Positions 29,648 to 43,284 of a DNA stretch of 64,000 bases are shown piece after piece. The notes under the pieces were generated by a model. It had not been told where the DNA came from, ran no database searches, and saw only the letters and a list, made by a program, of their open reading frames with translations. The stretch comes from Cellulomonas sp. RIT-PI-Y (GTDB taxonomy: Bacteria; Actinomycetota; Actinomycetes; Actinomycetales; Cellulomonadaceae), in contig NZ_JANZKP010000002.1 of assembly GCF_025642745.1 (NCBI RefSeq), forward strand, positions 1-64,000, read 5' to 3'. The number at the start of each line of letters is the position of its first letter. Position 1 is the first letter of the stretch. Made by a program: the position numbers and the translations under genes.

Positions 29648-31753
29648 GTGTCCGCTGTCTTCGACCTGCCCGCCATCCGTGCCGCCAAGTCCGACCCCGC
29701 CCTGATCGCCGAGGACCAGCGTCGCCTCGCCGCGATCGAGGACACCCTCACCGGATCGATCGCCGACCTGACCGCGCGGCTGGACGCCGCCCGCCGGGCT
29801 CCCGGTGGGCACGGCACCGCGGCCCTGGAACGTGACCAGGAGATCCACCGGCTCAATGCCCGACTGCGGCTGCTGCGGCGGTTCGGGCTGGACCTCTGCC
29901 TCGGCCGGATGGTGCCGGCCGACGGTTCCGCTCCGGTGTACATCGGGCGGATCGGGCTCACCGACCCGGACGGTCGGCGGCTGCTGGTCGACTGGCGGTC
30001 CGCGGTGGCCGAGCCGTTCTTCGGGGCCACGCACGCCGACCCGATGGGCCTGGCCAGTCGTCGCCGGTACCGCTGGACCGAGGGCCGGATCACCGACTAC
30101 TGGGACGAGGTCTTCGACGCCGGCCAGTGGGACCACCACGCGGCGCTGGACGACCAGTCGGCGTTCATCGCCAGCCTGGCCGGGTCGCGGTCGGCGCGGA
30201 TGCGGGACGTGCTCGGGACCATCCAGGCCGATCAGGACGCGATCATCCGCGCAGGCTCTCAGGGGGCGCTGGTGGTGGACGGCGGTCCGGGCACCGGCAA
30301 GACGGTGGTCGCCCTGCATCGCACCGCGTATCTGCTGTACGCCGACCCGCGGTGGGGGCATCGACGCGGCGGGGTGCTGTTCGTCGGACCGAGCCGGCCG
30401 TATCTGTCCTACGTCGGCGACGTGCTGCCCGGTCTGGGCGAGGAGGGGGTGACCGCCTGCACGCTGCGCGACCTGGTGCCCGAGGGGGCTCGTGCGCTCG
30501 AGGAGCTCGACCCGGAGGCGGCCCGGCTCAAGGCGGACGTCCGGATGGTGGCGGCGATCGAGCCGGCGGTGCGGTTCTACGAGCGCCCGCCCGAGGACGG
30601 CACCACCGTGCTGGACGACGTCCGGCTCAGCCCCGCCGACTGGGCGGAGGCGATCGACGGTGTCGAACCGGGCACTCCGCACAACGAGGCCCGGGACCAG
30701 GTGCGGGATGCGCTGGTCGCCGTCGTCCGGGACCGGGCCGACGTCTCGGTGACCCGGGCGCGGCAGGCACTGCGTCCCGGGTTGGACCGCTGGTGGCCGA
30801 TCCTCGACCCGCACGACCTGGTGGCCGACCTGTGGGAGGTCCCGGCCTACCTGCGGCTGTGCGCGCCCTGGCTCGACGCGGACCAGCGGGCGGTGCTGCG
30901 TCGCGCCGACCCGCGGGCCTGGACGGTGCCGGACCTGCCGCTGCTGGACGCGGCCCGGATGCGGCTCGGCGACCCGGAGCAGTCCGCCCACCAGGAGGCG
31001 CGGGACGCCACCGTCGCCACCGAGCGCGCCCGGATGTCCGACGTGATCGACGACCTGATCGCCGCCGACGACTCCACGCTGAGGGTGATGACCATGCTCC
31101 GCGACGACGACCTGCGCGACGCCCTGGTCGACGACACCGTGCTGCCGGTCGCCGAACCCGACCGGCTGGCCGGGCCGTTCGCGCACGTGGTGGTGGACGA
31201 GGCGCAGGAGCTCACCGACGCCGAGTGGCGGATGCTGCTCTCCCGCTGTCCGTCCCGGAGCCTCACCGTGGTCGGCGATCGGGCCCAGGCCCGGCACGGC
31301 TTCGCCGAGTCCTGGGCCGACCGCCTGCACCGGGTGGGGCTCGACCGGGTCGAGGTGGCAGCGTTGACCGTGAACTACCGCACCCCGGCCGAGGTGATGG
31401 CCGAGGCCGAGCGGGCGATCCGGGAGGCGGTGCCGGAGGCGAATGTCCCGACCTCGGTGCGGGAGACCGGGCGCCCGGTCCGCCACGGGCCGGCGGCGGG
31501 ACTGGGCGCGATGGTCGACGAGTGGCTGGCGACGCACGAGGGGACAGCCGCAGTGATCGGCGCCCCCGGGTACCGCTCCACCGACGGCCGGGTCAGCTCA
31601 CTGTCCCCGGCCCTGGCCAAGGGCCTGGAGTTCGACCTGGTCGTGGTCGTCGACCCCGCACGGTTCGGCGCCGGGGTCGAGGGAGCCGTCGACCGGTACG
31701 TGGCGATGACCCGGGCCACCGGTGACCTGGTGCTGCTGGAGACTCAGCCCTGA
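29648..31753 (+). CDS. helR: HelR/HelD-like RNA polymerase-recycling ATPase
   Basis: 701-aa superfamily 1 helicase-like motor that displaces rifamycin-bound or stalled RNA polymerase. Seen: an N-terminal charged coiled coil (to about residue 75), the family segment PVYIGRIGLTD and VDWRSAVAEPFF, Walker A GGPGTGKTVVALH near residue 217, Walker B VVVDEAQELTD near residue 515, VGDRAQARHGF, and VNYRTPAEVM. The GTG is preceded by GGAGG. An RAE upstream supports HelR rather than a general HelD. It ends by overlapping the convergent holin gene by ten bases. Established role of HelR: rifamycin tolerance. Confidence 0.88.
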   Translation: MSAVFDLPAIRAAKSDPALIAEDQRRLAAIEDTLTGSIADLTARLDAARRAPGGHGTAALERDQEIHRLNARLRLLRRFGLDLCLGRMVPADGSAPVYIGRIGLTDPDGRRLLVDWRSAVAEPFFGATHADPMGLASRRRYRWTEGRITDYWDEVFDAGQWDHHAALDDQSAFIASLAGSRSARMRDVLGTIQADQDAIIRAGSQGALVVDGGPGTGKTVVALHRTAYLLYADPRWGHRRGGVLFVGPSRPYLSYVGDVLPGLGEEGVTACTLRDLVPEGARALEELDPEAARLKADVRMVAAIEPAVRFYERPPEDGTTVLDDVRLSPADWAEAIDGVEPGTPHNEARDQVRDALVAVVRDRADVSVTRARQALRPGLDRWWPILDPHDLVADLWEVPAYLRLCAPWLDADQRAVLRRADPRAWTVPDLPLLDAARMRLGDPEQSAHQEARDATVATERARMSDVIDDLIAADDSTLRVMTMLRDDDLRDALVDDTVLPVAEPDRLAGPFAHVVVDEAQELTDAEWRMLLSRCPSRSLTVVGDRAQARHGFAESWADRLHRVGLDRVEVAALTVNYRTPAEVMAEAERAIREAVPEANVPTSVRETGRPVRHGPAAGLGAMVDEWLATHEGTAAVIGAPGYRSTDGRVSSLSPALAKGLEFDLVVVVDPARFGAGVEGAVDRYVAMTRATGDLVLLETQP

Positions 31754-31965
31754 ACCCGGTCCACCGGGCTGACCCTCGACCGCGCCCACAGCGTGGTGAC
31801 CGCCTCGATCAGCGCGTAGAGCGCGGCGATCACGGCGAGCACCCGGCCCTGCACCTCGGCGGAGACGCCCAGCCCGATCGCGGCGGCCAGCACGAACACC
31901 GCCCGAGCCACCGCCTGCACGGCGACGGGCTCCAGCGCCACGATCCGGCGCAGCAGTTCTTTCAT
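31744..31965 (-). CDS. Small holin-like protein
   Basis: 73-aa protein: short basic N-terminus MKELLRRIVALEP, a first hydrophobic helix (VARAVFVLAAAIGLGV) and a second (VLAVIAALYALIEAV), then a charged tail. Length and topology resemble phage holins, and it directly follows the endolysin: the ATG overlaps the endolysin stop as TGATG. Last gene of the tail cluster. Expected job: permeabilise the membrane so endolysin reaches the wall and particles are released. Assigned by topology and location, not motif. Confidence 0.7.
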   Translation of the reverse strand: MKELLRRIVALEPVAVQAVARAVFVLAAAIGLGVSAEVQGRVLAVIAALYALIEAVTTLWARSRVSPVDRVQG

Positions 31966-32807
31966 CAGTACCTCCCGGAGGCGATCGATGCCCGGTTCAG
32001 CGCACGCTGGTGCAGGCGGGTGGTGGTCGGTCCGGCGATCCCGTCGAAGTCGGCGGCGGTCGGGGACTGACCCTGGGTGTTGAACAGCCAGAACTGGCGG
32101 ACCCGGATGGTGGCGGAGCCCTCGATGCCGTCCACCGCGAGGGCGGTGCCACCGGTCAGGTCCCGGATGTTGCCGGCCGGGACCGCCGAGTTCAGGAACC
32201 GCTGGTCCGCCTGGATCAGCGTGGACACCGGCCGCGAGACCACTCCGTCCGCCGGGGTGCCGAGCACCTGCTGCCAGCGCGTGACCGTCGCGGGCCCGCG
32301 CACCCCGTCCTCGGCGATCGACGCGCTCACGGTGGGGCCCGGCGAACCGTCGTAGAGGTTCTGCAGGTCGACGTACCCGACGATGGCGGACGAGCGCGCC
32401 CGTCGGGCGACCCGGTTCCCGTTGTACTGGGACCCGGCGGTCCCGGCCGAGGTGTTGCCCTCGATCGCGAAGATCCCGGAGCCGGTGCGCGACTCCACGA
32501 TGCCGGTGTGGCAGACCGCCGGCACGCCCCGGCCCGCGGCGGACACCCCGGGCCACATGTACAGCACCAGGTCCCCTGGCCGGGGGTCGGCGCTCTTCCA
32601 CCGGCCGCGGGCTCGGGCCCAGCTGACCAGGTTCGGGGTCCAGCCGGTCCACGGGTGCTCCGCCAGTCCGGCCTGGCGCAGCACCCAGGTGGCGAAGTAC
32701 GCGCACCAGGCACCGCTGCTCACGCCGTGCGCGCGCTGGTACACCGCGCCGCCGACGGTGCCGAGCTGGGAACGGGCGACGGTCAGGACCTGCGCGGCGG
32801 TGGTCAT
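31965..32807 (-). CDS. CHAP-domain endolysin
   Basis: 280-aa cell-wall hydrolase. Seen: the CHAP catalytic part in residues 1-150 with the nucleophile Cys in SSGAWCAYFATWVL, and the matching His in AVCHTGIVESR, followed by two peptidoglycan-binding-like repeats (GVRGPATVTRWQQVLG and GIAGPTTTRLHQRALN). No signal peptide, as expected for a holin-released lysin. Start ATG overlaps the stop of the small gene upstream; GGAGGAGG lies inside that gene. It pairs with the holin as the lysis cassette of the tail cluster. Confidence 0.88.
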   Translation of the reverse strand: MTTAAQVLTVARSQLGTVGGAVYQRAHGVSSGAWCAYFATWVLRQAGLAEHPWTGWTPNLVSWARARGRWKSADPRPGDLVLYMWPGVSAAGRGVPAVCHTGIVESRTGSGIFAIEGNTSAGTAGSQYNGNRVARRARSSAIVGYVDLQNLYDGSPGPTVSASIAEDGVRGPATVTRWQQVLGTPADGVVSRPVSTLIQADQRFLNSAVPAGNIRDLTGGTALAVDGIEGSATIRVRQFWLFNTQGQSPTAADFDGIAGPTTTRLHQRALNRASIASGRY

Positions 32808-32902
32808 GCCTCCTCCTCGGGGGTCCAGTCCGGATCCTGCGGGACCTGCGGCTGGGGGCCGTCGGGGTCGAAGGGCCAGGTGTCGATCGGGGTGCAGCTC
32901 AT
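32804..32902 (-). CDS. 32-aa acidic peptide before lysin
   Basis: Short frame MSCTPIDTWPFDPDGP... ending TPEEEA, rich in Pro/Asp/Glu. The ATG is preceded by GGAGA, and its stop overlaps the lysin ATG (ATGA). Its 3' end carries the lysin ribosome site, so it may act mainly as a translational leader. Similar tiny Pro/Asp peptides are common beside actinophage lysin genes. No function is known. Confidence 0.55.
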   Translation of the reverse strand: MSCTPIDTWPFDPDGPQPQVPQDPDWTPEEEA

Positions 32903-32918
32903 GTCTCCTCCAGACACG

Positions 32919-32957
32919 GCACGGCCCCGCGCCGGTGAGGACCGGGCGGGGCCGTGC
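32919..32957 (-). terminator. Hairpin between tail genes and lysis cassette
   Basis: GCACGGCCCCGC pairs with GCGGGGCCGTGC, extended by CCGGT/ACCGG, around a short loop. It lies in the 67-base gap between the 134-aa gene and the lysis genes on the reverse strand. Possible attenuator lowering lysis expression relative to structural genes. Confidence 0.55.
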
Positions 32958-32969
32958 GAGGGTTCGGGG

Positions 32970-33374
32970 TCAGATGTCGGCGCTGATCTCCGGGGGCGGC
33001 GGGGGCAGCTCCTCCGAGGAGTGGCCGAGTGCCCCGGCCCAGGCGATCAGCGTCCGGATGTGGGTGATGGCGCGCCAGTACCGGGTGCGCACCACGTCCA
33101 CCTCCGCGCGCAGCTGCCGGACCTCGGCCCGCAGGCCGCCGACCTCCGCGCGCAGCGGTTCGATGATGTGCCCGGTGAGGATGCGGACCTGGCGCTCCCA
33201 GTGCGCGTCCTTGGTCTCTTCCTCGGTGGCCAGGGCCTGAGCCTCGACCAGACGGGCGTCGGCCTGGTAGCGGCGACGCTGCCACCGGGCACCCGCGACG
33301 GCGCCGAGGGAACCGAGCCCCCCGGCGCCGAGCAGCGCGGTGAGCAAGGAGGCCAGGAGGGGGTCGGTGGTCAT
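32970..33374 (-). CDS. Coiled-coil membrane-anchored phage protein
   Basis: 134-aa protein: an N-terminal hydrophobic Gly/Leu/Ala stretch (LLASLLTALLGAGGLGSLGAV) then a basic RWQRRR, then a heptad-rich coiled coil with repeated LRAEV units (residues 75-95) and a Pro-rich acidic tail (ELPPPPPEIS). Good AGGAGG ribosome site. Such proteins occur next to lysis genes in many actinophages, with unclear role (possibly spanin-like or antiholin). No confident family. Confidence 0.6.
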   Translation of the reverse strand: MTTDPLLASLLTALLGAGGLGSLGAVAGARWQRRRYQADARLVEAQALATEEETKDAHWERQVRILTGHIIEPLRAEVGGLRAEVRQLRAEVDVVRTRYWRAITHIRTLIAWAGALGHSSEELPPPPPEISADI

Positions 33375-33394
33375 GACGTCCCTCCTGTGGTGGC

Positions 33395-34369
33395 TCAGCT
33401 GCCGTAGGGCACGGCGATCCAGTTGAAGCGAGCGCTGCCGGCGCCGGCGCCGGCGTAGCGGATGGTGACCGTGCTACCCGTCGACGGCACCAGATTGGCC
33501 AGAGCGGTCCCGACGACGTACATCGAGTTCTGGGCTCCCGCGTCGCCGTTCTGGACCAGCACCGTGGACTGGACGGCGAACGGGCCGAAGCTCTGGGTGA
33601 AGGACCCGGAGCCAGCGGTCAGGACCCGGGTGAACGTGCCGCCCATGGGACCGACGATCCGCTTGGCCTGCGAGGAGGTGAGAACCGGCTGGACCGACCA
33701 GCCGGTGCCGTCGTGCCGCCACATCTGGCCGTTCGCGGTGTTGCTGTCGCCGACGTGCTCCACCCAGAGCGGATTCTCCTTCGAGGCGCCGAGCGTGGAG
33801 ACCAGGAGGTTCGCCTCCGTGGTCGAGCGCACCCGGATCGGTGCGCTCGCGGCCGCCAGGTAGAGGGCCTCCCAGACCACGCTCGGCGCGGCGCCTGCCG
33901 GCGGCACGATGATCCGGGCCAGCAGCAGGGAACGCTCCGGTGCGGTGGGCCGGGCCGGGGTGGCGGCGGGCTCGCCGACCCGGTACTCGATCCGGGCGGT
34001 CGGCGTGACCTCGGAGTCGGTCTCCGCGGGGTCGTCGATCACCAGGTACACCTGGTCCCAGCGGGTGTAGACCTGCGACGCCGCGGGGACGGTGCCGGAC
34101 TCCGGCTCGGCGACGGCCCAGGAGTACGGCCCGGCGGAGGCGGACAGGTGCGGGTCGATCACGCCCGCGCAGGGGTGCACGGTCCAGGTCGAGCCGCTGA
34201 CCGTCACGGTGTCCGGCGAGGTGCCGGGGCGGACGCCGGAGCGCACGCCGAACGGGCGGTCGGCGGTGGCGCCGGCCAGGAAGGGGGAGACCTGGGCCAG
34301 TCGCAGCGACCGGCCGGTGTAGGTGGGGGTGATGCCGTCGGTGGAGTCGAGCGGCCAGGCGTGTGCCAT
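33395..34369 (-). CDS. Putative minor tail/receptor-binding protein
   Basis: 324-aa protein, the most distal structural gene and so a candidate for the tip/fibre protein that recognises target cells. Seen: N-terminal AHAWPLDSTDGITPTYTGRS with a DPHLSASAGPYSW stretch and a YLVIDDP segment of the type common in actinophage minor tail proteins, and a beta-rich, Ser/Thr/Gly-rich C-terminus. No enzymatic motif seen. CAGGAGG lies upstream of the ATG. Assignment is from position and composition. Confidence 0.6.
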   Translation of the reverse strand: MAHAWPLDSTDGITPTYTGRSLRLAQVSPFLAGATADRPFGVRSGVRPGTSPDTVTVSGSTWTVHPCAGVIDPHLSASAGPYSWAVAEPESGTVPAASQVYTRWDQVYLVIDDPAETDSEVTPTARIEYRVGEPAATPARPTAPERSLLLARIIVPPAGAAPSVVWEALYLAAASAPIRVRSTTEANLLVSTLGASKENPLWVEHVGDSNTANGQMWRHDGTGWSVQPVLTSSQAKRIVGPMGGTFTRVLTAGSGSFTQSFGPFAVQSTVLVQNGDAGAQNSMYVVGTALANLVPSTGSTVTIRYAGAGAGSARFNWIAVPYGS

Positions 34370-34405
34370 GGGAAAACCTCCTGAGGATGTGGGGGAACGG
34401 GTGGG

Positions 34406-34936
34406 TCAGAGCGGTTCGACCCGCAGGGTGCACGGGCCGAAGGAGACGGCGGCGGCCGGGTCGGTGCGACGGACCCAGGCCTGGGCGACGATCACGCCGC
34501 CCTCGGCGGTGCCGGAGCGGTGCAGCGATCCGCCGACGGTGCCGCCGTCGGTGCGCAGCAGGGCGGAGCGAGGCCCCGGATCCGCCACGAGGGGTGCGGT
34601 CGGGGAGTCCTCGACGCCCCAGGCCAGCCCGGCGGTCGCGGTGCCGTCGCGGGGATCGATCAGCACCTGGTCGCAGTCGACGGTGACCCGGACGGGGCCG
34701 TCGGCCGGCAGCGACAGCACCGGTCCGACGAGTCCGTCGCCGGCGCCCGGATCGACGGAGTCCAGACGCACCTCGGTCGGCAGGGCCGCGAACCGGGCGG
34801 TGGTCGCCACCGTGGCGGTCCCGGTCGTGGTGCCCGGTCCCGCCCGCAGGCGTCGCAGCTCGGCGCGCAGGGCGGCGAGCTGCCGGGTGAGATGGTCCTC
34901 GCCCGGTGGGTGGTGTGCGGCGATTCCGCCCGGCAT
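34406..34936 (-). CDS. Minor tail protein
   Basis: 176-aa protein with an N-terminal coiled coil (HLTRQLAALRAELRRLRAG) and a beta-rich remainder containing LSLPADGPVRVTVDCDQVLI and a WGVEDSPTAPL segment. It starts right after the stop of the Gp37-like gene, so translation is probably coupled. The N-terminal trimeric-looking coil followed by beta structure resembles small fibre or tip proteins. Function not established. Confidence 0.6.
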   Translation of the reverse strand: MPGGIAAHHPPGEDHLTRQLAALRAELRRLRAGPGTTTGTATVATTARFAALPTEVRLDSVDPGAGDGLVGPVLSLPADGPVRVTVDCDQVLIDPRDGTATAGLAWGVEDSPTAPLVADPGPRSALLRTDGGTVGGSLHRSGTAEGGVIVAQAWVRRTDPAAAVSFGPCTLRVEPL

Positions 34937-34937
34937 G

Positions 34938-36047
34938 TCAGTCCTCCTCGATCGTGATCAGGGCCTCGGTGTCGGCGAGCACCGGCACCACGGTGGGGGC
35001 GGCCGGATCCAGGTCGAGCGTCCAGCCGATGCACCGGGCCACCCCGTCCAGCCCGCGCGGGAAGGACGGCACGCCGGGATCGACGTGGTAGCCGATGTCG
35101 TCGCCGAGCGCCCAGTCGACGCCGAGCAGCGGGGCCCGATCCGCCCGGGCGGTCAGGGCCAACGACTGGGCGCCGTCCCGGAGCACGGCCAGGGCCCCGG
35201 CGGCCGCCTCGTCCAGCACGGCGGTCGAGGTCGTCCTGCCCGGTGACCACCGGTGCTCCACCGTCGGCCGGTCCGGATCCGGGTGCACCTGGGCGGCGGA
35301 CTCCGGTCGGGCGCCGCCGGTGGTCGAGCTCGTCCCGGTGGCGATCACCCGGTTCGCGCCCTTGCCGTCGGCCCAGTCCTCGACCAGTTCCAGGGCGGTG
35401 AGCACCCCGGGCAGGTCGAGCACCGCGGCCGGGGGCAGTGCGCCGGCGGACGTGCCGATCCGGTCGGCGATCAGCAGTACCGGGACGTAGCGCAGGGCGC
35501 CGTCGGTCTCGGCCTCCTTGCTCCAGCCGACGGTGTACTCCAGTCCGCCGGAGGCCGAGGACAGATCGTCGAGAGCGTCCAGCACCGTGGTGTCGGAGTC
35601 GTGCGTCCAGCTCCGGGTCCGCGTGGTGCTGCCCGGCCGGGTCTGCACCCGCAGGGCGATGCTGCCGTCCAGCACGGACCGGGTGACCAGGTCCGCGGCC
35701 AGCGCGCACTGCTCCCGGGCGGTGTAGCTCAGGGTGCCGAGGTAACGCCGCCCCAGGTACGTCTCCATCGTGCCGAGGGTGATCGTGACCTCGTCCCCGG
35801 CGGTCCGGAGCCGTTTGAGCACCAGCCCGCCCCAGACCGGGTCGCCGTCGTCGTCCACCAGCACCAGCGCGGAGCCGAGCGGCGTGGTGGCCCGTTCCCA
35901 CTCGGTCGGTGCGCCGCTCACCGGCAGGACGCCGTTCGCGGTGCTGTAGTCGGACAGCCGCACGGCCACCGATCCGACCGAGAAGCCCGGCAGGTCGCAG
36001 ATGATCCGTCCGGTGCGCAGTTCGGTGGCGATCCACTGGTGTCCCAT
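34938..36047 (-). CDS. Tail-tip protein (Gp37-like)
   Basis: 369-aa protein resembling the siphovirus ReqiPepy6 Gp37-like family of minor tail proteins, which attach to the distal tail protein. Seen: WIATELRTGRIICDLPGF at the start, VLVDDDGDPVWGGLVLKR, and a C-terminal LGDDIGYHVDPG with GWTLDLDP. It starts 2 bases after the upstream stop. Expected location is the tail tip, bridging to receptor-binding proteins. Assignment is by family resemblance from memory. Confidence 0.7.
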   Translation of the reverse strand: MGHQWIATELRTGRIICDLPGFSVGSVAVRLSDYSTANGVLPVSGAPTEWERATTPLGSALVLVDDDGDPVWGGLVLKRLRTAGDEVTITLGTMETYLGRRYLGTLSYTAREQCALAADLVTRSVLDGSIALRVQTRPGSTTRTRSWTHDSDTTVLDALDDLSSASGGLEYTVGWSKEAETDGALRYVPVLLIADRIGTSAGALPPAAVLDLPGVLTALELVEDWADGKGANRVIATGTSSTTGGARPESAAQVHPDPDRPTVEHRWSPGRTTSTAVLDEAAAGALAVLRDGAQSLALTARADRAPLLGVDWALGDDIGYHVDPGVPSFPRGLDGVARCIGWTLDLDPAAPTVVPVLADTEALITIEED

Positions 36048-36049
36048 GC

Positions 36050-36901
36050 TCACTCCCAGGCCGATCGGGTGGTCACGGTCATCCGGGCGCCGGGCCCGGC
36101 GGTGGCGGTGCCGAACACCCAGGTGTTCCGGCCCGGCAGGGCCTCGGACCATTCCCGCCGGGTCAGCAGCCGGGAGCGCGAGGCGGTGCCCTGCGCCAGC
36201 ACCTGGCGGTCGTCCATCTGCACCACCAGGTGCTCGCCCTCGGCCAGGCTGAGCGCCGAGGACAGCGCCACGGTCCGGTCGGTCTGCGCGTGCCGGACCG
36301 AGGGCCCGGTCAGCGGACCGTCGAACCGCACCGTCACGGGTGCGGCGATCGTCCCGTCGTTGGTCAGCGACACCTCGCCGCTCGACACGGTCGAGGCGAT
36401 CGAGAACGGGACGGTGAACGGCACCGCCAGTCCGCCGCTGGAGGAGGCGACCTCGGTGGACCGCTCCTGCTCGGCTCCGTACCAGCGCGGGTCCTCCGCG
36501 ATCACCTGGGCCGACCAGCTGAACGTCCGGTCGGTGATCCGGGTGATGATCACCTCGCCGTCACGGCGGACCGTGCTGGCCCGCCGGTCCGTCCCGTCCA
36601 CCAGCACCAGCTCGGTGCGGTCCAGGGTGATCGCCGACTTCAGCCGGTCCCGGCCTGCCGCGGCGGCCTCCGGGTCGTCGCCGTGGATCCAGCCCGAGAC
36701 GGCGATGCTCCGGCCGCCCAGGAAGGACCCGCCGGTCCACACCCCGTGGCCCAGCGTGCGCTGGGTGGCGGCCAGGGTCGGTGCGGGTGAGCCCGCGGCC
36801 CCGTCCAGGTCGCCCAGCACGATGCTGACCCCGGCCTCGTCGTCCCGGCCGCTGATCACCAGATCCCCGATGGTCACGTATTCACGCGAGAGCGGTCGCA
36901 T
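36050..36901 (-). CDS. Distal tail (Dit)-like protein
   Basis: 283-aa tail protein. Seen: N-terminal MRPLSREYVTIGDLVISG, a GGSFLGGRSIAVSGWIHGD segment typical of Dit-type beta sandwich, WSAQVIAEDPRWYG, and a C-terminal jelly-roll-like stretch (GEVSLTNDGTIAAPVTV). It directly follows the tape measure gene, the fixed position of Dit in siphophages. The ATG overlaps the tape-measure stop (TGATG). It forms the hub connecting the tube to the tip. Confidence 0.75.
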   Translation of the reverse strand: MRPLSREYVTIGDLVISGRDDEAGVSIVLGDLDGAAGSPAPTLAATQRTLGHGVWTGGSFLGGRSIAVSGWIHGDDPEAAAAGRDRLKSAITLDRTELVLVDGTDRRASTVRRDGEVIITRITDRTFSWSAQVIAEDPRWYGAEQERSTEVASSSGGLAVPFTVPFSIASTVSSGEVSLTNDGTIAAPVTVRFDGPLTGPSVRHAQTDRTVALSSALSLAEGEHLVVQMDDRQVLAQGTASRSRLLTRREWSEALPGRNTWVFGTATAGPGARMTVTTRSAWE

Positions 36902-38823
36902 CACACCTCCTGCAGCCATTGCCGGCGCGCCACGGCCGCGGCAGCGGCGAGCGGGTCCGGCGTCGTGATGTTGAATGTTGTGCCGGCGCGGTTGGCGTTC
37001 CGCCCCCAGGCACGGGTGTCGACGGCCCCGAGCGAGGCCTCGACGGTCGGACTGATCGACGCGGTGAGCCGGCCGAGCGAGCGCTGGACGGCGCCGTACT
37101 CCGACTCCAGGCCGTCGACCAGGCCGGTGATGATGAGCTGCCCGGCACCGACCAGCAGGACCTTGTCCCGGCTGACCGGGCCCTTCCAGTCCGGGATCAT
37201 GTCGGTGAGCCGGCCGAAGGCGTCCCTGACCCGGTCGAACGCCCCGGTCACCCCGCTGATCAGGCCCTCGACGATCTTGATGCCGATCTCTTTCAGCCAC
37301 TCGCCGGCATCGCCGACGAAGCCCCGGATCCGGTCCGGCAGTCCGGTGAACCAGTCCCGGACGGTCGGCCACACGTCCTCGACGCCCTGCAGGACGCCGC
37401 GGATCAGATCGCCACCGGCGGCGAGCATCAGGACCACGCCGGTGGCCAACGAGGTCACCAGCTGCGGCAGCATCCCGATCACGGCCTGGAGCAGCTGCGG
37501 CACGACCTGGCCCAGCCCGTCGATCAGCCCGAAGAACATCGTCACCGCTCCGACGATCAGCTGCGGCAGCATGGCGGCCAGTGCCGTCAGCAGGTTCGGC
37601 AGCACCACGGTGAGCAGCGTGTCGACCAGGGTCGGCAGCATGTCCGTGAGCCCGGTGACCAGCGCGAGGAACATGTCCATCGCGCCGAGGATCAGCTGGG
37701 GCAGCATCGTGACCAACGTGTCCAGCAGGGTCGGCAGCCCGACGGTGAGCAGGGTGTCGATCAGCATCGGCAGGGCGGTGTTCAGCCCGTCGACCAGGGC
37801 CTGGAACAGGGAGATCGCCCCGGTGATCAGCTGCGGGAGCATCGTGATCAGGGTGTCGATCAGGCCCGGCAGCACCACGTTCACCAGGGTGTCGATCAGG
37901 GTGGGCAGCACGTCGTTCACCAGGGAGTCGATCAGCTGGGGAAGCATCGTGGTCAGCCCGGTGACCAGCGCGGTGAACAGGGTCAGCGCCGATTCCAGGA
38001 GCTGCGGCAGCATCGCGCCGAGGGTGGTGATCAGCTGCGGCAGCACGTCGCCGACCAGGGTGTCGATCAGGGTCGGCAGGGTGTCCACCAGCGCGGTGAC
38101 CAGCCCGTTGAACAGATCGAGCCCGGCGGTGACCAGTCCGGGCAGGGCCCCGATCAGCGTGGTCGCCACCTGCGGCAGGAGGTCCGAGATCGCGGTGAGC
38201 AACGCCGGCGCCATCTCGGAGACGGTGCCGGCCAGGGTGTTCACCATCTCGGTCGCCGCGGAGGCCAGCCCGGGCAGCGCGGCGGAGACCGACTCGACCA
38301 CCTGGGGCAGCACGTCGCCGATCGGGGCCCCGGAGCCCAGTGCGGCGAACTGGTCGCCGACGTTCTTGGCCGCGTCCTCGACCGGTCCGAGCATCCCGAC
38401 CAGCCCGCCGAGTGCCGCGTCCGCGGCGGGCATCAGCCCGGAGGTCAGGTTGGTGCCGATCCGGCTGAGAGACTCGTCCAGACCCGAGAACGCGTCCCCG
38501 AAGGACACGTCGGCGAAGACCTTGCTGCCCAGCGTGGACAACCCGCCCAGCGCCGTCCCGAAGCCCGCCGAGGCGAGGTCGCCCAGCTTCGAGAAGGCCG
38601 TTGCGCTCAGCTGTACGGCAGCCTCGGCGGCCTGCGGCACCAGGGTCTGGATCGAGCTGGCCGCCTGCTTCGCCCCGTTCGGGATGTCGTTGAACAGCTT
38701 CGTGAAGTGGTCCTTGGCGGAGTTCACCGCCCGGTCGAAGGACCCGGCGACCTCGGCTTCCACCTCCTTCGACACAGTGCGTGGGAAGATGTCTTGGCTG
38801 GTGACCGCGGCTTTCTCGCTCAC
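36901..38823 (-). CDS. Tape measure protein
   Basis: 640-aa long helical protein that sets tail length and sits inside the tube. Seen: Ala/Leu-rich helices and, over residues about 215-455, an internal repeat made of LPTLIDTL-like 12- and 11-residue units followed by a 22-residue LPQLI...LFxALVxGL unit, about four or five copies of a 45-residue super-repeat. The C-terminus has a GLISGVTGAFDRVRDAF and a WKGPVSRDKVLL segment typical of actinophage tape measures. At about 1.5 angstrom per residue it predicts a tail near 95 nm (inference). Follows the frameshifted chaperones as in siphophages. Confidence 0.88.
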   Translation of the reverse strand: MSEKAAVTSQDIFPRTVSKEVEAEVAGSFDRAVNSAKDHFTKLFNDIPNGAKQAASSIQTLVPQAAEAAVQLSATAFSKLGDLASAGFGTALGGLSTLGSKVFADVSFGDAFSGLDESLSRIGTNLTSGLMPAADAALGGLVGMLGPVEDAAKNVGDQFAALGSGAPIGDVLPQVVESVSAALPGLASAATEMVNTLAGTVSEMAPALLTAISDLLPQVATTLIGALPGLVTAGLDLFNGLVTALVDTLPTLIDTLVGDVLPQLITTLGAMLPQLLESALTLFTALVTGLTTMLPQLIDSLVNDVLPTLIDTLVNVVLPGLIDTLITMLPQLITGAISLFQALVDGLNTALPMLIDTLLTVGLPTLLDTLVTMLPQLILGAMDMFLALVTGLTDMLPTLVDTLLTVVLPNLLTALAAMLPQLIVGAVTMFFGLIDGLGQVVPQLLQAVIGMLPQLVTSLATGVVLMLAAGGDLIRGVLQGVEDVWPTVRDWFTGLPDRIRGFVGDAGEWLKEIGIKIVEGLISGVTGAFDRVRDAFGRLTDMIPDWKGPVSRDKVLLVGAGQLIITGLVDGLESEYGAVQRSLGRLTASISPTVEASLGAVDTRAWGRNANRAGTTFNITTPDPLAAAAAVARRQWLQEV

Positions 38824-38838
38824 TCCGCCCTCCTTGAG

Positions 38839-39312
38839 TCAGTGTGACGACGGCGCGTCGTGGCCGTCGTGGTCGGTAGGCCCCGCGGCATCACGGCCGA
38901 AGAGCAGGTCGTCGAGCAGGGCACGCTGTGCGTGGTCCTCCTCGGTGAGGGGCCGGAGCGGCCCGGTGGCCGGCGTGGTGCCGGCGGCCCACGGACGGGG
39001 CAGGGTCTGCGGCCGGGTGTGCTTGCCGCGGTGGGCGTTGAGGTAGCCCTCGAACAGGTCCACGCCGATCTGCCGGGCGGGGCCGGGCACGTAGGACCAG
39101 TCGAGGAGCGACGCCACGGTGTGGGAGTCGGGGTCGCGGAGGATCTGAGAGGTCAGCGCCCACGCCTCGGCCCAGGTCATCTCCCGTCGTAGGAACGCGG
39201 AGACGCCCAGGCCGAAGCGGCTGCGCCAGTCGTACTCGAGCGCCGGTCTGTGGTCTCGGATCAGCGCCCAGAGACCGGCTGCGAGGGGTCCAGGCGCGAG
39301 TGCTGCGCCCAC
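38839..39312 (-). CDS. Tail assembly chaperone, frameshift extension
   Basis: The second reading frame of the tail chaperone pair (G-T type). Seen: ALIRDHRPALEYDWRSRFG and EMTWAEAWALTSQILRDPDS, which is typical of the second chaperone in actinophages, then a Pro/Asp/His-rich end. The frame opens at 39312 and overlaps the end of the first chaperone by about 50 bases in the -1 frame. It is probably made as a fusion by programmed -1 frameshift near CCCC (reverse strand, 39285-39288), not from its own GTG, which lacks a ribosome site. Confidence 0.75.
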   Translation of the reverse strand: MGAALAPGPLAAGLWALIRDHRPALEYDWRSRFGLGVSAFLRREMTWAEAWALTSQILRDPDSHTVASLLDWSYVPGPARQIGVDLFEGYLNAHRGKHTRPQTLPRPWAAGTTPATGPLRPLTEEDHAQRALLDDLLFGRDAAGPTDHDGHDAPSSH

Positions 39313-39608
39313 TGCTCGATCAGGCCGCCGACCCAGGCCAGCGGGGTCTGCTGACGCTTGATCACCTGCCAGATCTTCGGCTGGTCCTCCTGCAGCCAGC
39401 TGACGAAGGCGCCGATCACCCGGAACTGGGTGTCGGAGTCCGCGGCCGACTCGGTGCGCAGGGTGAGGACGACCGGGATCAGGCCCAGCGGGATGTCCGC
39501 GGACATCAGGGCGGGCAGTTCGAACCGCTCGCCGTCGATCGCGAACCGGAACGGGTCGGCACCGGACACGATGTCGTTGGCGGGGGAGATCTCGAGGTAC
39601 TCGGTCAT
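39261..39608 (-). CDS. Tail assembly chaperone, first frame
   Basis: 115-aa protein beginning MTEYLEISPANDIVSG, with AIDGERFELPALMSAD and LTLRTESAADSDT. It coats the tape measure before the tube polymerises. The ATG at 39608 has CAGGAG upstream. It is placed between the major tail protein and the tape measure, the invariant position for this gene. Overlaps the second chaperone frame at its 3' end, as in lambda G/GT. Confidence 0.8.
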   Translation of the reverse strand: MTEYLEISPANDIVSGADPFRFAIDGERFELPALMSADIPLGLIPVVLTLRTESAADSDTQFRVIGAFVSWLQEDQPKIWQVIKRQQTPLAWVGGLIEQWAQHSRLDPSQPVSGR

Positions 39609-39645
39609 GGGGTGCTCCTGGGGTGCTGGCAACGTGGCAACGGGT

Positions 39646-39683
39646 CCGCCGGGCCGGCTGGTTGCCGTCAGCCGGCCCGGCGG
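39646..39683 (-). terminator. Strong hairpin after major tail protein
   Basis: CCGCCGGGCCGGCTG pairs perfectly with CAGCCGGCCCGGCGG (15 bp) around an 8-base loop, between the major tail protein and the chaperone gene. Likely an attenuator that makes major tail protein more abundant than downstream genes. Confidence 0.7.
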
Positions 39684-39698
39684 GGTCGGGGCCGGAGC

Positions 39699-40289
39699 TC
39701 AGCCCTCGGGCGTGGTCTCCGGCTGCTCCTGCACGAAGCCCCAGGCCTTGAAGTGGTACGGCGCGTCCGCGGCACCGGCGAAGGTCCGGAAGGTCATCCC
39801 GTAGGCGAGCAGCGTGGTGCGGTTGAACGCCATGTCCTCACGGGCGTTGATCTGCACGTTCGGGTAGTGCACGAGCACCAGCGCGTCGTTCTGGTCCAGG
39901 CCGACGGTGACGATGTCGTAGCGGCGGGACGCGGCGGCCGAGGTGACCTCCAGCGAGCCGTCGGCGGCGACCTCGGTGTCGAAGTAGGCCTCGGCGTTCT
40001 GCGCGTTGGCCTCCAGACCGGAGAAGGTCAGCGTCCAGTAGCCCGGGGCGAACTCGGCGAAGACGCTGTCGCCGTTGTGTGCGGCGATCGTGGTCTCGTC
40101 GCCCGGCACCGCGGACAGGGTGAACCCGGCGTCGGAGTAGTAGCCCAGGCGGCCGTCGTCCTCGGTCGGGGTCCAGTTCACGCCGGTCGGCGCGGTGGCG
40201 CTGCCCGCCTTCCGGATGAAGATCGCGCCGTTCTTGACCAGGCGGACCAGGTCGGTGTTGTTCGTCTGCATGTACTCGGGGGTGGCCAT
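39699..40289 (-). CDS. Major tail (tube) protein
   Basis: 196-aa protein starting MATPEYMQTNNTDLVRL with KNGAIFIRKAGSA, a beta-sandwich-like middle (TLSAVPGDETTIAAHNGD) and RYDIVTVGLDQNDALVLVHYP, which fits actinophage major tail subunits that stack into the non-contractile tube. AAGGAGG lies upstream of the ATG. First gene of the structural operon, followed by a strong hairpin. No sheath gene is present, so the tail is non-contractile. Confidence 0.82.
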   Translation of the reverse strand: MATPEYMQTNNTDLVRLVKNGAIFIRKAGSATAPTGVNWTPTEDDGRLGYYSDAGFTLSAVPGDETTIAAHNGDSVFAEFAPGYWTLTFSGLEANAQNAEAYFDTEVAADGSLEVTSAAASRRYDIVTVGLDQNDALVLVHYPNVQINAREDMAFNRTTLLAYGMTFRTFAGAADAPYHFKAWGFVQEQPETTPEG

Positions 40290-40323
40290 GGAGGCGTCCT
40301 CCTTGATGTGGGTGTGGGTGGGC

Positions 40324-40344
40324 GACATGCGCCGGGCGCATGTC
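40324..40344. promoter_or_regulatory. 21-base perfect palindrome, candidate operator
   Basis: GACATGCGCC-G-GGCGCATGTC, ten-base perfect arms about one central base, 35 bases upstream of the major tail protein start. Its symmetry fits a dimeric repressor such as the cluster's XRE proteins. It is the only such palindrome in the tail operon's upstream region. Confidence 0.6.
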
Positions 40345-40368
40345 CGGGTGGACGGATCCGGGTACGAC

Positions 40369-40403
40369 GAAGCCCCGGCCTCGGGAGTCGAGGTCGGGGC
40401 TTC
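40369..40403. terminator. Hairpin between regulators and tail operon
   Basis: GAAGCCCCGGCCTC and GAGGTCGGGGCTTC pair with one G-T around a 7-base loop, between the HTH gene and the palindrome. Would end transcription from the regulator operon before the structural genes. Confidence 0.6.
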
Positions 40404-40444
40404 GGGGGATCGTCCTGCGGGCAGAGCTCCGCGTGAGATCGACA

Positions 40445-40630
40445 TTACGGGGCGGCGATCCGATCACGCCAATTCTTCTCCGCCCGCCGCACGTCGCCGA
40501 GGTGAACCACCCTCCGACCTGCGAAGACGTCGCTGCGGACCTTCCCGCGGCTGGCCCAGACCCGGATGGTGCCGGGCAGCACCCGGACCGCCCGGGCGGC
40601 GTCGTCGACCCGTGCCCACTGCTCGCTCAC
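40445..40630 (-). CDS. Small MerR/excisionase-like DNA-binding protein
   Basis: 61-aa protein: WARVDDAARAVRVLPGTIR resembles the helix-turn-helix of MerR/Xis proteins, then VWASRGKVRSDVFAGRRVVHL with a beta wing, then a basic end. The GTG start overlaps the upstream stop (GTGA). No integrase gene is present, so it is more likely a transcriptional regulator of the adjacent tail operon than an excisionase. Function inferred from fold and location. Confidence 0.65.
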   Translation of the reverse strand: MSEQWARVDDAARAVRVLPGTIRVWASRGKVRSDVFAGRRVVHLGDVRRAEKNWRDRIAAP

Positions 40631-41277
40631 CGGCACATCGCCTCCCACTCGTCCTCGGAGAACACCCGGGCGCAGTCCGGGTCGGAGCACTCCACCCGTA
40701 CCGGATCGCCCGGGGCCCGGGGCGGGGTGCGGTAGAGCGCGAAGAGTCCGCAGGCGGGGCACGGACGGTCGAGCTGCTGGGCGCGCACCGGCTCGTCCGC
40801 GGCGGGGTAGCGGTGCCGCAGCGCGTCGACGGTCTCGCAGACCTCCCGACGGAGCTCGCCGGCCCACTCCTGCCCGGCGCACCAGGGCAGGTACCCGGTC
40901 AGCCAGCTCACCGCGTCGCCGGTGCGCCGGGTCGTCCGCGGGTGCTCGTCCGCGACGAGACCGGCCCACGACTCGAGCAGTCCGAGCAGGTCGTCGGCCG
41001 CCAGCCAGGGGGCGGGCAGCACGGTCAGGGTGCTGGGGTCGGCGTGCCCGCGGGTGGGCCGGTCGTAGGAGCGGGAGCGTGCGGAGGGCTCCCCGATCTC
41101 GCGCAGGTGCGCGAGCAGGGCGGGCACCCGGTCGATCGCCTCGGTGAGCCGGGACCAGCACCAGCCGCACAGGCGGCCGTGCACGGCGGGTCGGGGCAGG
41201 CAACCGGCGCAGTCGGTGCCCGGGCAGGTCTCGTGGTGCGCGCCGGTCGTCCGGCAGCCGGTCAGGCACGGGGTCAT
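40627..41277 (-). CDS. Zinc-ribbon phage-type protein
   Basis: 216-aa protein with two Cys-rich ends. Seen: an N-terminal group (CLTGCRTTGAHHETC, then GTDCAGC and LCGWC) and a C-terminal CPACGLF with a later ECSDPDCARVF, two likely zinc ribbons, separated by a helical middle containing WLAADDLLGLLESW. Proteins like this sit before structural genes in many actinophages; their job is unknown. The ATG start lacks a clear ribosome site. Adjacent to WhiB and the HTH protein in one operon. Confidence 0.65.
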   Translation of the reverse strand: MTPCLTGCRTTGAHHETCPGTDCAGCLPRPAVHGRLCGWCWSRLTEAIDRVPALLAHLREIGEPSARSRSYDRPTRGHADPSTLTVLPAPWLAADDLLGLLESWAGLVADEHPRTTRRTGDAVSWLTGYLPWCAGQEWAGELRREVCETVDALRHRYPAADEPVRAQQLDRPCPACGLFALYRTPPRAPGDPVRVECSDPDCARVFSEDEWEAMCR

Positions 41278-41309
41278 GGGTCCTCCCAGAGGTCGTGGGT
41301 CGTGGGTCG

Positions 41310-41573
41310 TCACGGGGTGCGCAGTGCGCGCCGTTCGGTCGGGGTCAGTCCGCCGCGCATGCCGTGGTCGGCGCGGCGCTCGGGGTCGAGGGCATCGGCC
41401 AGGCAGAGCTCCCGCACCGGGCAGCTCGCGCAGATCCGTCGGGGCAGCTCCCACGCCCCGGGATGCGGAGTGCCACGGTCGTCCGGTTCGAACAGGGCGG
41501 GGGAGCGGCCGACGCAGGCGCCGTGGTGCTGCCACGGCTCGTCGTCCTCCCGGGGCTGCAGCTGCGGGTTCAT
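41310..41573 (-). CDS. WhiB-family iron-sulfur regulator
   Basis: 87-aa WhiB-like protein. Seen: four cysteines (ACVG, then ICASCP, then ELCLAD) that hold a 4Fe-4S cluster, and the G[VI]RGG-type turn as HGMRGGLTPTERR, both hallmarks. WhiB proteins bind sigma factor SigA and steer transcription. Phage-encoded versions are known in actinophages. The ATG overlaps the upstream XRE stop (ATGA), so they are co-translated. Likely switches host/phage promoters when the tail cluster is induced. Confidence 0.9.
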   Translation of the reverse strand: MNPQLQPREDDEPWQHHGACVGRSPALFEPDDRGTPHPGAWELPRRICASCPVRELCLADALDPERRADHGMRGGLTPTERRALRTP

Positions 41574-41809
41574 CGGTTGACCGTCGGTCGCGCATCGGGC
41601 GACTGCGTGCGCGCGAACAGGGTGCCCGGCACCACGTGCAGCGCCTCCTCGATGCGTGCCCCCACCGGCTCGGAGCATCCGCGACGACTGCCGGTGGTGA
41701 GCATGTGGATGAACTGGCGCGAGACGCCGGCGCGGCGGCCGAGGTCGGCCTGGGTGTATCCCCCGGCGTCGAGGTAGCGGGTGAGTTGGCGCGGGTCGCG
41801 CAGGTGCAT
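41570..41809 (-). CDS. XRE-family helix-turn-helix regulator
   Basis: 79-aa Cro/C1-like protein. Seen: GYTQADLGRRAGVSRQFIHML, a classic HTH_3 motif, followed by RIEEALHVVPGTLF. First gene of the leftward regulatory operon; WhiB starts in its stop (ATGA). A TTGACA/TGCAAT promoter lies 37-66 bases upstream. Divergent from a second XRE gene and ImmA, so the two regulators likely form a lysis-like switch. Confidence 0.88.
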   Translation of the reverse strand: MHLRDPRQLTRYLDAGGYTQADLGRRAGVSRQFIHMLTTGSRRGCSEPVGARIEEALHVVPGTLFARTQSPDARPTVNR

Positions 41810-41845
41810 GACGTGCCCCCTGAGGTCGGTACGGCTGAGGGCTCC

Positions 41846-41875
41846 ATTGCACCGCCGCGACCGCCGCCATGTCAA
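41846..41875 (-). promoter_or_regulatory. Leftward promoter for XRE-WhiB operon
   Basis: Reverse strand TTGACA (41870-41875), 18 bases, TGCAAT (41846-41851). A near-consensus -35 in strongly GC-rich DNA, 37 bases before the ATG. Confidence 0.6.
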
Positions 41876-41904
41876 TCAGCACAGGACCAGTCGTCGCGCT
41901 ACGG

Positions 41905-41934
41905 TTGACGCGCATCGCGCCGATCGGGCACAGT
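41905..41934 (+). promoter_or_regulatory. Rightward promoter for XRE-ImmA operon
   Basis: TTGACG (41905-41910), 18 bases, CACAGT (41929-41934). Two further TTGAC hexamers (41973 and 41994) lie downstream, so more than one start is possible. Confidence 0.45.
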
Positions 41935-42070
41935 GGGGTTCCGTGCAGCCGATGAGCCCGGTCGCACACTGCTTGACGAGGAATCGTCCGGGGTTGACTA
42001 CCCTGGGCCCTCGCGCCGTCCGGCCCGGTCCTCTCCCGGTCGCCGGTCGAGTCCCAGGGAAGGAAACCCC

Positions 42071-42523
42071 ATGCACGCGCTACGTCAGTACGTCCAGGGC
42101 GAGATGGACCGCCGCGGCTGGAAGCCGGTCGACCTCGCGAAGCGCTCCGGTGTGTCCAAGCAGGTGTTGAGCAATCTGCTCAACGACGACCGGGACGAGC
42201 TCCGGATGCTCCCGTCGCGGGAGACCGTCGACGGCCTGGCCGCCGCGCTCTCGGTGGACCGGGACGTGCTGCTCGGCGTGATCGGCGAGGCGATGGGCAT
42301 CCCGGTCGGCCGCACGGTGGTGGTCTACGACGCGTCCCGGGTCTCCGACGAGGATCTGCTGCACGAGCTCGCGCAGCGGCTCGCCGCCCGGGCGCCGGGC
42401 GCCGCTCCGGCTCCCGCGCTGCTGGACGAGCTGGACGCCCGGCGTCGCAAGCCGGTGCCGGAGGTCGGCGCCGCCGCGGCCCGCCGCGGCTCGCTGCACC
42501 GGCCGGCCGACACCCAGGAGTGA
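42071..42523 (+). CDS. XRE-family repressor (ImmR-like)
   Basis: 150-aa regulator. Seen: an N-terminal HTH (GWKPVDLAKRSGVSKQVLSNLL) of the Cro/C1 type, SRETVDGLAAALSVDRDVL after it, then a helical oligomerisation part and an Ala/Pro-rich, basic end. GAAGGA precedes the ATG. It precedes an ImmA/IrrE-type protease in the same operon, the pairing known from ICEBs1, where the protease cuts the repressor to induce the element. Probably the lysogeny-type repressor of the tail cluster. Confidence 0.85.
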   Translation: MHALRQYVQGEMDRRGWKPVDLAKRSGVSKQVLSNLLNDDRDELRMLPSRETVDGLAAALSVDRDVLLGVIGEAMGIPVGRTVVVYDASRVSDEDLLHELAQRLAARAPGAAPAPALLDELDARRRKPVPEVGAAAARRGSLHRPADTQE

Positions 42524-42540
42524 CCGGTTGACCAGCGGTG

Positions 42541-42987
42541 ATGTCGGAGCACGGGGATAACGTCGGGACCATGGAGATGTACCACCCGTGGCGTGCGTTG
42601 CGTGCGATGACGCACGTCGACGTGCAGTGGGTGGAGCTCCCGGACGGGGTGCTCGCGCTCGGTGACGGGGAGACGGTGTGGATGGACCGGCGGCAACGTC
42701 AGGCCCAGCGGCGTTCGACCATCGCGCACGAGCTCGAGCACCTGAGCGCCGGGGACACGGGGTGCCAGAGCCCCGCGGTGGAGCGCCGGATCGACGAGGT
42801 CGCCGCGGCGAAGCTGGTGTCGTTGGACCAGCTGGCCGAGGCGATCGTGTGGGCGATGAGCGAGGAGGAGCTGGCCCTGGACCTGTGGGTCGACGTCGAC
42901 GTGGTCCGCACCCGGCTCGGCAGCCTCACCGAGGAGGAGAGGGACGCGATCGACCGGGTGATCGCGGCACGCGAGGAGTCGCTATGA
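42541..42987 (+). CDS. ImmA/IrrE-type metalloprotease
   Basis: 148-aa zinc protease. Seen: the HEXXH motif in TIAHELEHLSAG near residue 64 preceded by RRQRQAQRRS, and a later helical part with EEELALDLWVDV. The family activates mobile elements by cutting their repressors on DNA damage or other signals. Its partner is the XRE gene just upstream. An ATG at 42571 (MEMYHPWR) is an alternative start. Its 3' end overlaps the convergent DUF3467 gene by six bases. Confidence 0.85.
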   Translation: MSEHGDNVGTMEMYHPWRALRAMTHVDVQWVELPDGVLALGDGETVWMDRRQRQAQRRSTIAHELEHLSAGDTGCQSPAVERRIDEVAAAKLVSLDQLAEAIVWAMSEEELALDLWVDVDVVRTRLGSLTEEERDAIDRVIAAREESL

Positions 42988-43284
42988 CGGCTCGGTCGGG
43001 CGCCGGCCGGTCTCCGACTCCCAGGCGGACAGCTGCTGCTCCAGAGCCTTCATGATCTCGAACACCTGGCTCGGCGGGAGCTTCACCCGGGCGATCACCT
43101 GGGCGTCGACCTGGGTGACCGGCTGACCGTCCGCGCCCTCGCCCGGCCGCCCCGGGCCGACCATGGCCGCGAAGTCCAGGACGAACACGTCCGGCGTGTG
43201 CCAGGCGGACACGAAGTCGGCGTGCACCCCGGTGACCTGCTCCGGCGGCATGGTGATCGACACGTTGGTCGGGCGCGCGTTCAT
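42982..43284 (-). CDS. DUF3467 family protein
   Basis: 100-aa small protein. Seen: NVSITMPPEQVTGVHADFVS, then VFVLDFAAMVGPG and VIARVKLPPSQVFEIMKALE, the three-part pattern of DUF3467. The family is found in bacteria and archaea with unknown function. It lies at the edge of the tail cluster and converges with ImmA. No clear ribosome site. Whether it belongs to the element or to the host backbone is not clear. Confidence 0.75.
   Translation of the reverse strand: MNARPTNVSITMPPEQVTGVHADFVSAWHTPDVFVLDFAAMVGPGRPGEGADGQPVTQVDAQVIARVKLPPSQVFEIMKALEQQLSAWESETGRRPTEPS

What the first reader, a model, noticed from the sequence alone, without database searches (positions are those of the whole stretch)
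31744..43284. Tail-only phage cluster: candidate non-contractile (F-type) tailocin
The cluster has major tail protein, frameshifted chaperones, tape measure, distal tail and tip proteins, endolysin and holin, with regulators, but no capsid, portal, terminase, integrase or replication gene in the 11.5 kb before flanking host genes. Every structural frame is intact. That is the signature of a domesticated phage tail used as a bacteriocin. F-type tailocins are rarely described in actinobacteria.
Basis: partly seen in the sequence, partly recalled or inferred. Interest (0 to 1): 0.78.

Follow-up and report, generated by a model that had tools for sequence, protein, structure and literature searches.

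The report
Headless phage tail cluster, possible bacteriocin
A high-GC actinobacterium carries a compact set of phage tail, lysis and switch genes without the head, DNA-copying and integration genes of a whole phage, which is what one expects of a bacterial weapon made from a phage tail, although nothing computed here shows that it still assembles or kills.

Summary
Window 31744-42987 encodes 17 genes: a repressor/ImmA pair, four small regulators, a siphophage tail set (tube, chaperones, tape measure, Dit, tip), endolysin and holin. Profile searches found no terminase, portal, capsid, replication, integrase or sheath gene. All frames are open and 93% of the stretch is coding. In complete relatives a capsid gene lies upstream of the tail, and in L062 and L067 the same phrog_1467-HTH pair precedes the terminase; here the pair is followed after 154 bases by the tube gene. 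The best reading is an F-type, monocin-like tailocin made from a siphoprophage (0.58). Points against: no other tail-only copy was found; none of 15 related genomic sites holds it, and the site is a variable hotspot; no tail-terminator gene was recognised; and the chaperone overlap lacks the slippery heptamer seen in 10 of 12 relatives, having only a hypothetical motif. A recently beheaded, functionless remnant (0.30) is a serious rival. If it works, it would be the first actinobacterial F-type tailocin in the literature I could search.

The parts
31744..31965 (-). holin, 73 aa
   Evidence: phrog_9752 holin E 2.7e-5; strongly hydrophobic; its 3' end overlaps the end of the helR gene by 10 bases (coordinates)
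31965..32807 (-). endolysin with CHAP domain
   Evidence: Pfam CHAP 4.5e-8; phrog_21825 3.2e-27
32970..33374 (-). small protein with an N-terminal hydrophobic segment, phrog_1397, function unknown
   Evidence: (1.7e-8)
33395..34369 (-). putative receptor-binding or tip protein (phrog_3398, filed by PHROGs under head and packaging)
   Evidence: 2.8e-11; 20 Arthrobacter phage records match, up to 65% coverage, the 10 listed annotated minor tail (8) or virion structural (2); model pLDDT 65.8, no significant fold match
34406..34936 (-). small protein after the tip gene, function unknown
   Evidence: no family; weak similarity to proteins just after Tal in some phage loci
34938..36053 (-). tail-tip (Tal-like) minor tail protein
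   Evidence: phrog_1885 4.7e-20; 45% and 41% to L013 and L014
36050..36901 (-). distal tail protein Dit
   Evidence: phrog_5577 1.1e-32; Pfam SPP1_Dit 4.8e-6
36901..38823 (-). tape measure protein, 640 aa, with repeats of about 45 residues
   Evidence: phrog_5493 7.1e-60; repeats
38839..39312 (-). tail assembly chaperone, downstream part (TAC2), in the -1 frame of TAC1
   Evidence: phrog_4075 5.1e-8; no ribosome-binding site of its own
39261..39608 (-). tail assembly chaperone, upstream part (TAC1)
   Evidence: tblastn to L032 and L033 at 4e-15 and 6e-17; no family match
39699..40289 (-). major tail (tube) protein
   Evidence: phrog_476 5.4e-18; 63% to viral contig L027
40290..40444 (-). inferred deletion point: short gap where complete relatives have terminase, portal, capsid and connector genes
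   Evidence: comparison with L062 and L067; gap length
40445..40630 (-). small MerR-like HTH protein (HTH_b)
   Evidence: phrog_2474 1.1e-4; 53% to L062
40627..41277 (-). cysteine-rich phrog_1467 protein, possible late regulator
   Evidence: phrog_1467 8.4e-17; matches in 20 of 396 order genomes including its own
41310..41573 (-). WhiB-like regulator
   Evidence: Pfam Whib 8.1e-16
41570..41809 (-). small Cro-like HTH protein (HTH_a)
   Evidence: Pfam HTH_3 6.8e-5; 58-62% to G205 and G204
41810..42070 (.). divergent control region between repressor gene and tail operon
   Evidence: 261-base gap; imperfect repeats; no exact GAACNNNNGTTC site
42071..42523 (+). CI/Cro-type repressor; no peptidase domain found
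   Evidence: Pfam HTH_3 1.7e-5
42541..42987 (+). ImmA/IrrE-type metallopeptidase, HELEH motif, putative anti-repressor
   Evidence: Pfam Peptidase_M78 4.6e-5; phrog_87 1.1e-12; motif

Best explanation
An F-type (non-contractile) tailocin made from a temperate siphophage. At rest the repressor (42071) silences the tail operon. After stress the ImmA-type protease (42541) removes the repressor. HTH_a, WhiB, the phrog_1467 protein and HTH_b then switch on the operon. Chaperones, tape measure and tube protein assemble headless tails; the Tal-like protein and the 33395 protein aim them at the envelope of related bacteria; holin and endolysin burst the producer and free them. Shown: gene content, open frames, order, and no recognised head, replication or integration gene. 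Inferred from relatives: loss of the head block and of the integrase. Inferred only: the place where early genes were lost, induction, assembly, release, killing, and selection for them.
For: Tail, lysis and switch modules with all 17 frames open and 93% coding. A capsid gene lies upstream of the tail in 14 of 14 tail relatives checked. The phrog_1467/HTH_b pair precedes terminase in L062 and L067, so the head block is missing here at HTH_b|MTP. In own-genome contig C72 an integrase-like frame (my reading, no profile search) follows an ImmA gene, whereas here a host lacI follows. The gaps at the inferred loss points are about 155 and 32 bases, too short for genes; I did not search them for remnants beyond the MTP frame. 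Plan and metalloprotease match the Listeria monocin as described in PMC6872733 (passages).
Against: No second tail-only copy: 0 of 15 related sites; Dit matches in 11 of 221 family genomes, MTP in 8 of 396 order and 2 of 394 class genomes, own genome included each time, and those examined carry head genes. X XXY YYZ heptamer in 10 of 12 relatives, GGGGGAA in the other 2, neither here. No terminator gene recognised; in TP901-1 its loss gives long polytails (PMC4493119, passages). No exact LexA-like site in the cluster. No selection test was possible.
Confidence: 0.58

Rival explanations
1. A cryptic prophage remnant that lost its integrase, early and head modules recently and has no function; its open frames only mean that too little time has passed.
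For: Sporadic presence in a variable hotspot, 0 of 15 related sites; slippery heptamer absent; no terminator gene recognised; tape measure (640 aa) shorter than all six compared relatives (689-1100 aa), though the candidate tape measure of L013 is only 533 aa.
Against: Two losses supported by comparison and a third inferred all fell between whole genes and left every tail, lysis and switch gene open.
Confidence: 0.3
2. A stress-triggered lysis and regulatory island whose ImmA protease co-induces other prophages of the genome, the tails being incidental.
For: The same genome has a head-bearing siphoprophage contig C52 and contig C72 with an ImmA gene; the monocin protease controls a co-resident prophage in Listeria (PMC6872733, passages). 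HTH_a-repressor-ImmA modules without recognised phage neighbours exist in G204 and G205.
Against: C72 has its own ImmA, only 35% identical to this one; this does not explain keeping a whole tail module.
Confidence: 0.07
3. One end of a complete prophage, split by assembly or rearrangement.
For: Tail homologs checked sit beside head genes.
Against: The cluster lies inside a 140,667-base contig with non-phage genes on both sides; window tail proteins have no tblastn match in the fetched part of the C52 prophage.
Confidence: 0.02

Closest known systems
Monocin (F-type tailocin of Listeria monocytogenes)
   Same: 17 genes in regulatory, tail and lysis modules, no capsid genes and no early module, a CI-like repressor and a metalloprotease anti-repressor (PMC6872733, passages); 17 genes here too
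   Different: Different phylum; WhiB and phrog_1467 regulators here; sequence relationship not tested; production and killing are reported for monocin, not shown here
Rhizoviticin (F-type tailocin of Allorhizobium vitis)
   Same: chimeric prophage locus with regulators, tail and lysis genes, lacking head formation (PMC10811719, passages)
   Different: Gram-negative host; antagonism shown; sequence not compared
F-pyocin (Pseudomonas aeruginosa)
   Same: non-contractile headless tail (PMC12090994 and PMC8910223, passages)
   Different: related to phage lambda, Gram-negative host; sequence not compared
Actinobacterial siphophages and siphoprophages (L027, L062, G057, Arthrobacter and Bifidobacterium phages)
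   Same: homologous tail proteins, about 25-63% identity
   Different: those checked carry head genes
Streptomyces contractile injection systems
   Same: phage-tail-derived machines in actinobacteria (PMC8910223, passages; PMC10020575 and PMC13277306, listings only)
   Different: contractile; no sheath gene recognised here

Membership tests
F-type tailocin | non-contractile siphophage tail gene set (tube, chaperone, tape measure, Dit, tip) | tested here: met
   no sheath match
F-type tailocin | no head, packaging, replication or integration genes | tested here: met
   for the 17 genes (phrog_3398 is filed under head and packaging but reads as a tip protein); neighbours are HelR and LacI
F-type tailocin | own lysis cassette and regulators | tested here: met
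F-type tailocin | assembly functions intact, chaperone frameshift included | tested here: inconclusive
   frames open, but no X XXY YYZ heptamer; GGACCCC 31 bases before the TAC1 stop fits my reading of PRFect's hypothetical 'twoonefour' motif, found in register near the end of 2 of the 47 other window ORFs
F-type tailocin | kept at one site across related genomes (typical rather than defining) | tested here: not met
   0 of 15 related sites; strains of the same species were not available
F-type tailocin | induced by stress or DNA damage | tested here: inconclusive
   repressor/ImmA pair present; no exact LexA-like palindrome in the cluster, three one-mismatch sites inside genes (motif recalled)
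F-type tailocin | headless particles that kill relatives | not testable with these tools
   needs induction, microscopy and killing assays
R-type tailocin or contractile injection system | contractile sheath | tested here: not met
   no match
Complete prophage | terminase, portal, capsid, integrase | tested here: not met

The most novel reading that the evidence does not exclude
The first F-type tailocin of the Actinomycetota: a monocin-like weapon that arose independently from an actinobacterial siphoprophage, run by a repressor/ImmA switch and a WhiB regulator, using a non-canonical frameshift site and possibly making tails without a dedicated terminator.
Probability: 0.5. Interest if true: 0.62.

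Novelty: new member of a known kind. Interest (0 to 1): 0.45.

Why it matters
F-type tailocins are rarely described: PMC10811719 (passages) names only F-pyocin and monocin besides rhizoviticin. A working one in a high-GC Gram-positive would add an independent origin in a third phylum, with the same outcome as monocin (switch, tail and lysis modules kept; head and early modules lost), and could serve as a narrow-spectrum tool against actinobacteria. Even if dead, the locus is a neat case of a siphoprophage without its head block.

Tried and rejected
Att site at the tRNA-Leu: a search with the tRNA's own 3' end found only the tRNA itself; the repeat search showed 20 of 50 direct-repeat families, none of them at the tRNA.

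Second tail-only copy: Dit, MTP, phrog_1467, ImmA and Tal queries gave none that I could recognise. In the 40 loci showed a head hit by tblastn; the other 32 are no evidence of head loss, since loci are cut at about 10 kb and the head queries are few. Weak matches not examined for head genes: five of the ten other Dit genomes, three of the seven other MTP genomes, G702 and L029.

Frameshift: first taken as lost, then softened. Besides the 12 relatives counted, I scanned six loci (L014-L018, L062) without a defined chaperone pair: L015 and L017 show CCCTTTC 70 and 58 bases before a stop, the others nothing clear at a frame end; these six are left out of the count, as are L020/L021 and L032/L033 (same genomes as L030/L031 and L022/L023) and L026 (no usable pair).

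Fold of the 33395 protein: mean pLDDT 65.8, residues 231-324 below 50, no match with E under 0.05; phi812 baseplate and SPP1 gp22 are only a hint. The promoter scan found none, which says little for high-GC actinobacteria. Paper search was badly framed (none of 15 listed papers held 'tailocin') and one search gave nothing of use.
Full report
What is there. The window is bases 1-64000 of a 140,667-base contig of a 3.5 Mb, 94-contig, high-GC genome. On the minus strand, from 41809 down to 31744, lie HTH_a, a WhiB-like regulator, a phrog_1467 protein, a small MerR-like HTH (HTH_b), major tail protein, TAC1, TAC2, tape measure, Dit, a Tal-like tip protein, a small protein, a putative receptor-binding protein, a small protein with a hydrophobic N-terminus, a CHAP endolysin and a holin. 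On the plus strand lie a CI/Cro-type repressor and an ImmA/IrrE-type protease with an HELEH motif. All 17 frames are open, 93% of 31744-42987 is coding, and 11 of 17 genes have GGAGG or AGGAG within 18 bases upstream. PHROGs files the family of the 33395 protein (phrog_3398) under head and packaging; its phage matches are annotated minor tail protein (8 of 10 listed) or virion structural protein (2), and I read it as a tip protein. The neighbours are a HelR RNA-polymerase recycling ATPase (NCBIfam NF041254, 1140 bits) and a LacI regulator followed by transporter and GH31 genes.

Where it came from. The tail proteins are siphophage proteins. The tube protein is 60-63% identical to viral contigs L027-L029 and 35-43% to four prophages of the same order; Dit is 41% and Tal 45% identical to those of G057. 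I checked 14 tail relatives for head genes and found a capsid gene upstream of the tail in all 14: L013-L017, L027, L028, L030-L033 and L062 by profile search, L211 and L212 by annotation. L067, related through the regulators only, also has terminase, portal and capsid. Weaker matches were not checked (listed in Tried and rejected). In L062 and L067 the phrog_1467 protein and HTH_b stand before the terminase-portal-capsid block. In the window the same pair is followed, after about 155 bases, by the tube gene. The simplest account is that the head block dropped out there. In contig C72 of the same genome an ImmA gene is followed by what reads as a tyrosine-integrase frame (my reading, no profile search); here ImmA is followed by lacI. 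Early genes are absent too, but I have no comparison that shows where they were lost.

The site. In relatives, an NDH-like oxidoreductase gene and tRNA-Leu are followed by a siderophore-interacting protein gene. Fifteen related regions were fetched; the NDH-like gene was seen in 14, the siderophore gene in 12 (three fetched stretches end before one is met), and a cluster gene in 0, even at E 1e-3. From tRNA to siderophore gene the distance is 0.5-9.3 kb in 11 of the 12 (in L139 the tRNA match has the opposite orientation) and 21 kb in the window. HelR orthologs of 12 relatives (61-69% by tblastn) have no tRNA-Leu and no window neighbour beside them, apart from paralog-level matches of 28-33% in two (a thirteenth, on a 4.1 kb contig, was not compared). 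So the cluster sits in an accessory hotspot and is not an old fixture of the genus. No second copy of the tRNA end was found.

Is it intact? Two points weaken that claim. First, siphophage tail assembly needs a TAC1-TAC2 fusion made by a -1 frameshift; disrupting the slippery site of TP901-1 left capsids without tails (PMC4493119, passages). Of 12 relatives whose overlap I could read, 10 have an in-frame X XXY YYZ heptamer (CCCAAAA in L022, L023, L027, L030, L031, L211, L212; CCCAAAC in L024; GGGAAAA in L028, L029) and 2 (L013, L025) have GGGGGAA, a motif that PRFect reports as common in actinobacteriophages. The window has GAC CCC TCG at the matching place and no such heptamer anywhere in TAC1. 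It does hold GGACCCC in register, 31 bases before the TAC1 stop, the same distance as in L013. This fits my reading of the 'twoonefour' motif that PRFect proposes; the motif's definition is in a supplement I did not see, and it is untested (PMC10885494, passages). Two of the 47 other window ORFs carry such a motif in register near their end. Second, no tail-terminator gene was recognised; TP901-1 without it makes long polytails. I did not check whether known F-type tailocins have one.

How it most likely works. No peptidase domain was found in the repressor, so release by the ImmA-type protease is the likely switch, as shown for the monocin protease MpaR in Listeria (PMC6872733, passages). No exact GAACNNNNGTTC site lies in the cluster (the window's two are at 5088 and 53746); one-mismatch sites at 32196, 34250 and 36521 lie inside genes. 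The operon would then yield tails, and holin and endolysin would free them by lysis. Assembly, release and killing are inferred.

What is known. The papers seen describe F-type tailocins in Pseudomonas, Listeria and Allorhizobium (PMC10811719, PMC12090994, PMC8910223, passages). Searches (3 of 3 papers listed; 20 of 32; 15 of 80; 29 of 29) of the open-access library showed, in titles and abstract starts, no F-type tailocin in actinobacteria; the actinobacterial machines seen there are contractile (PMC10020575, PMC13277306, listings; PMC8910223, passages). The 2016 monocin paper is not held, so no sequence comparison with monocin was made. This is therefore a candidate new member of a known kind.

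Verdict. The tailocin reading is the best single explanation (0.58), with a recently beheaded, non-functional prophage as the main rival (0.30).

Noticed in passing
window 22103-25816 (+): 1237-aa RHS/YD-repeat protein with an RHS core domain, a possible polymorphic toxin, left of the tRNA-Leu; GC falls to 0.66 just after it.
   Followed up: partly
window 29648-31753 (+): HelR, an RNA polymerase recycling ATPase, sits in the accessory hotspot here but in other contexts in the 12 relatives compared.
   Followed up: partly
window 29461-50683: The tRNA-Leu to siderophore-protein interval is an insertion hotspot: 0.5-9.3 kb in 11 relatives, 21 kb here.
   Followed up: yes
G000 contigs C52 (L018) and C72 (L209): The same genome has a head-bearing siphoprophage contig and a contig with HTH, ImmA and an integrase-like frame, perhaps parts of one prophage.
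   Followed up: partly
L196 (G205) and L200 (G204): HTH_a-repressor-ImmA modules, 43-62% identical to the window's, lie without recognised phage neighbours.
   Followed up: partly
G159:C1 near 2657, 4123867 and 4162201: Three ImmA matches with identical scores in one genome, perhaps copies of one element.
   Followed up: no
G466:C1:3622887 and G466:C2:33477: The phrog_1467-HTH_b stretch occurs twice with identical identities, perhaps two copies of one prophage or an assembly duplicate.
   Followed up: no
window 37466-38327: The tape measure gene carries repeats with a 135-base (45-residue) period.
   Followed up: no
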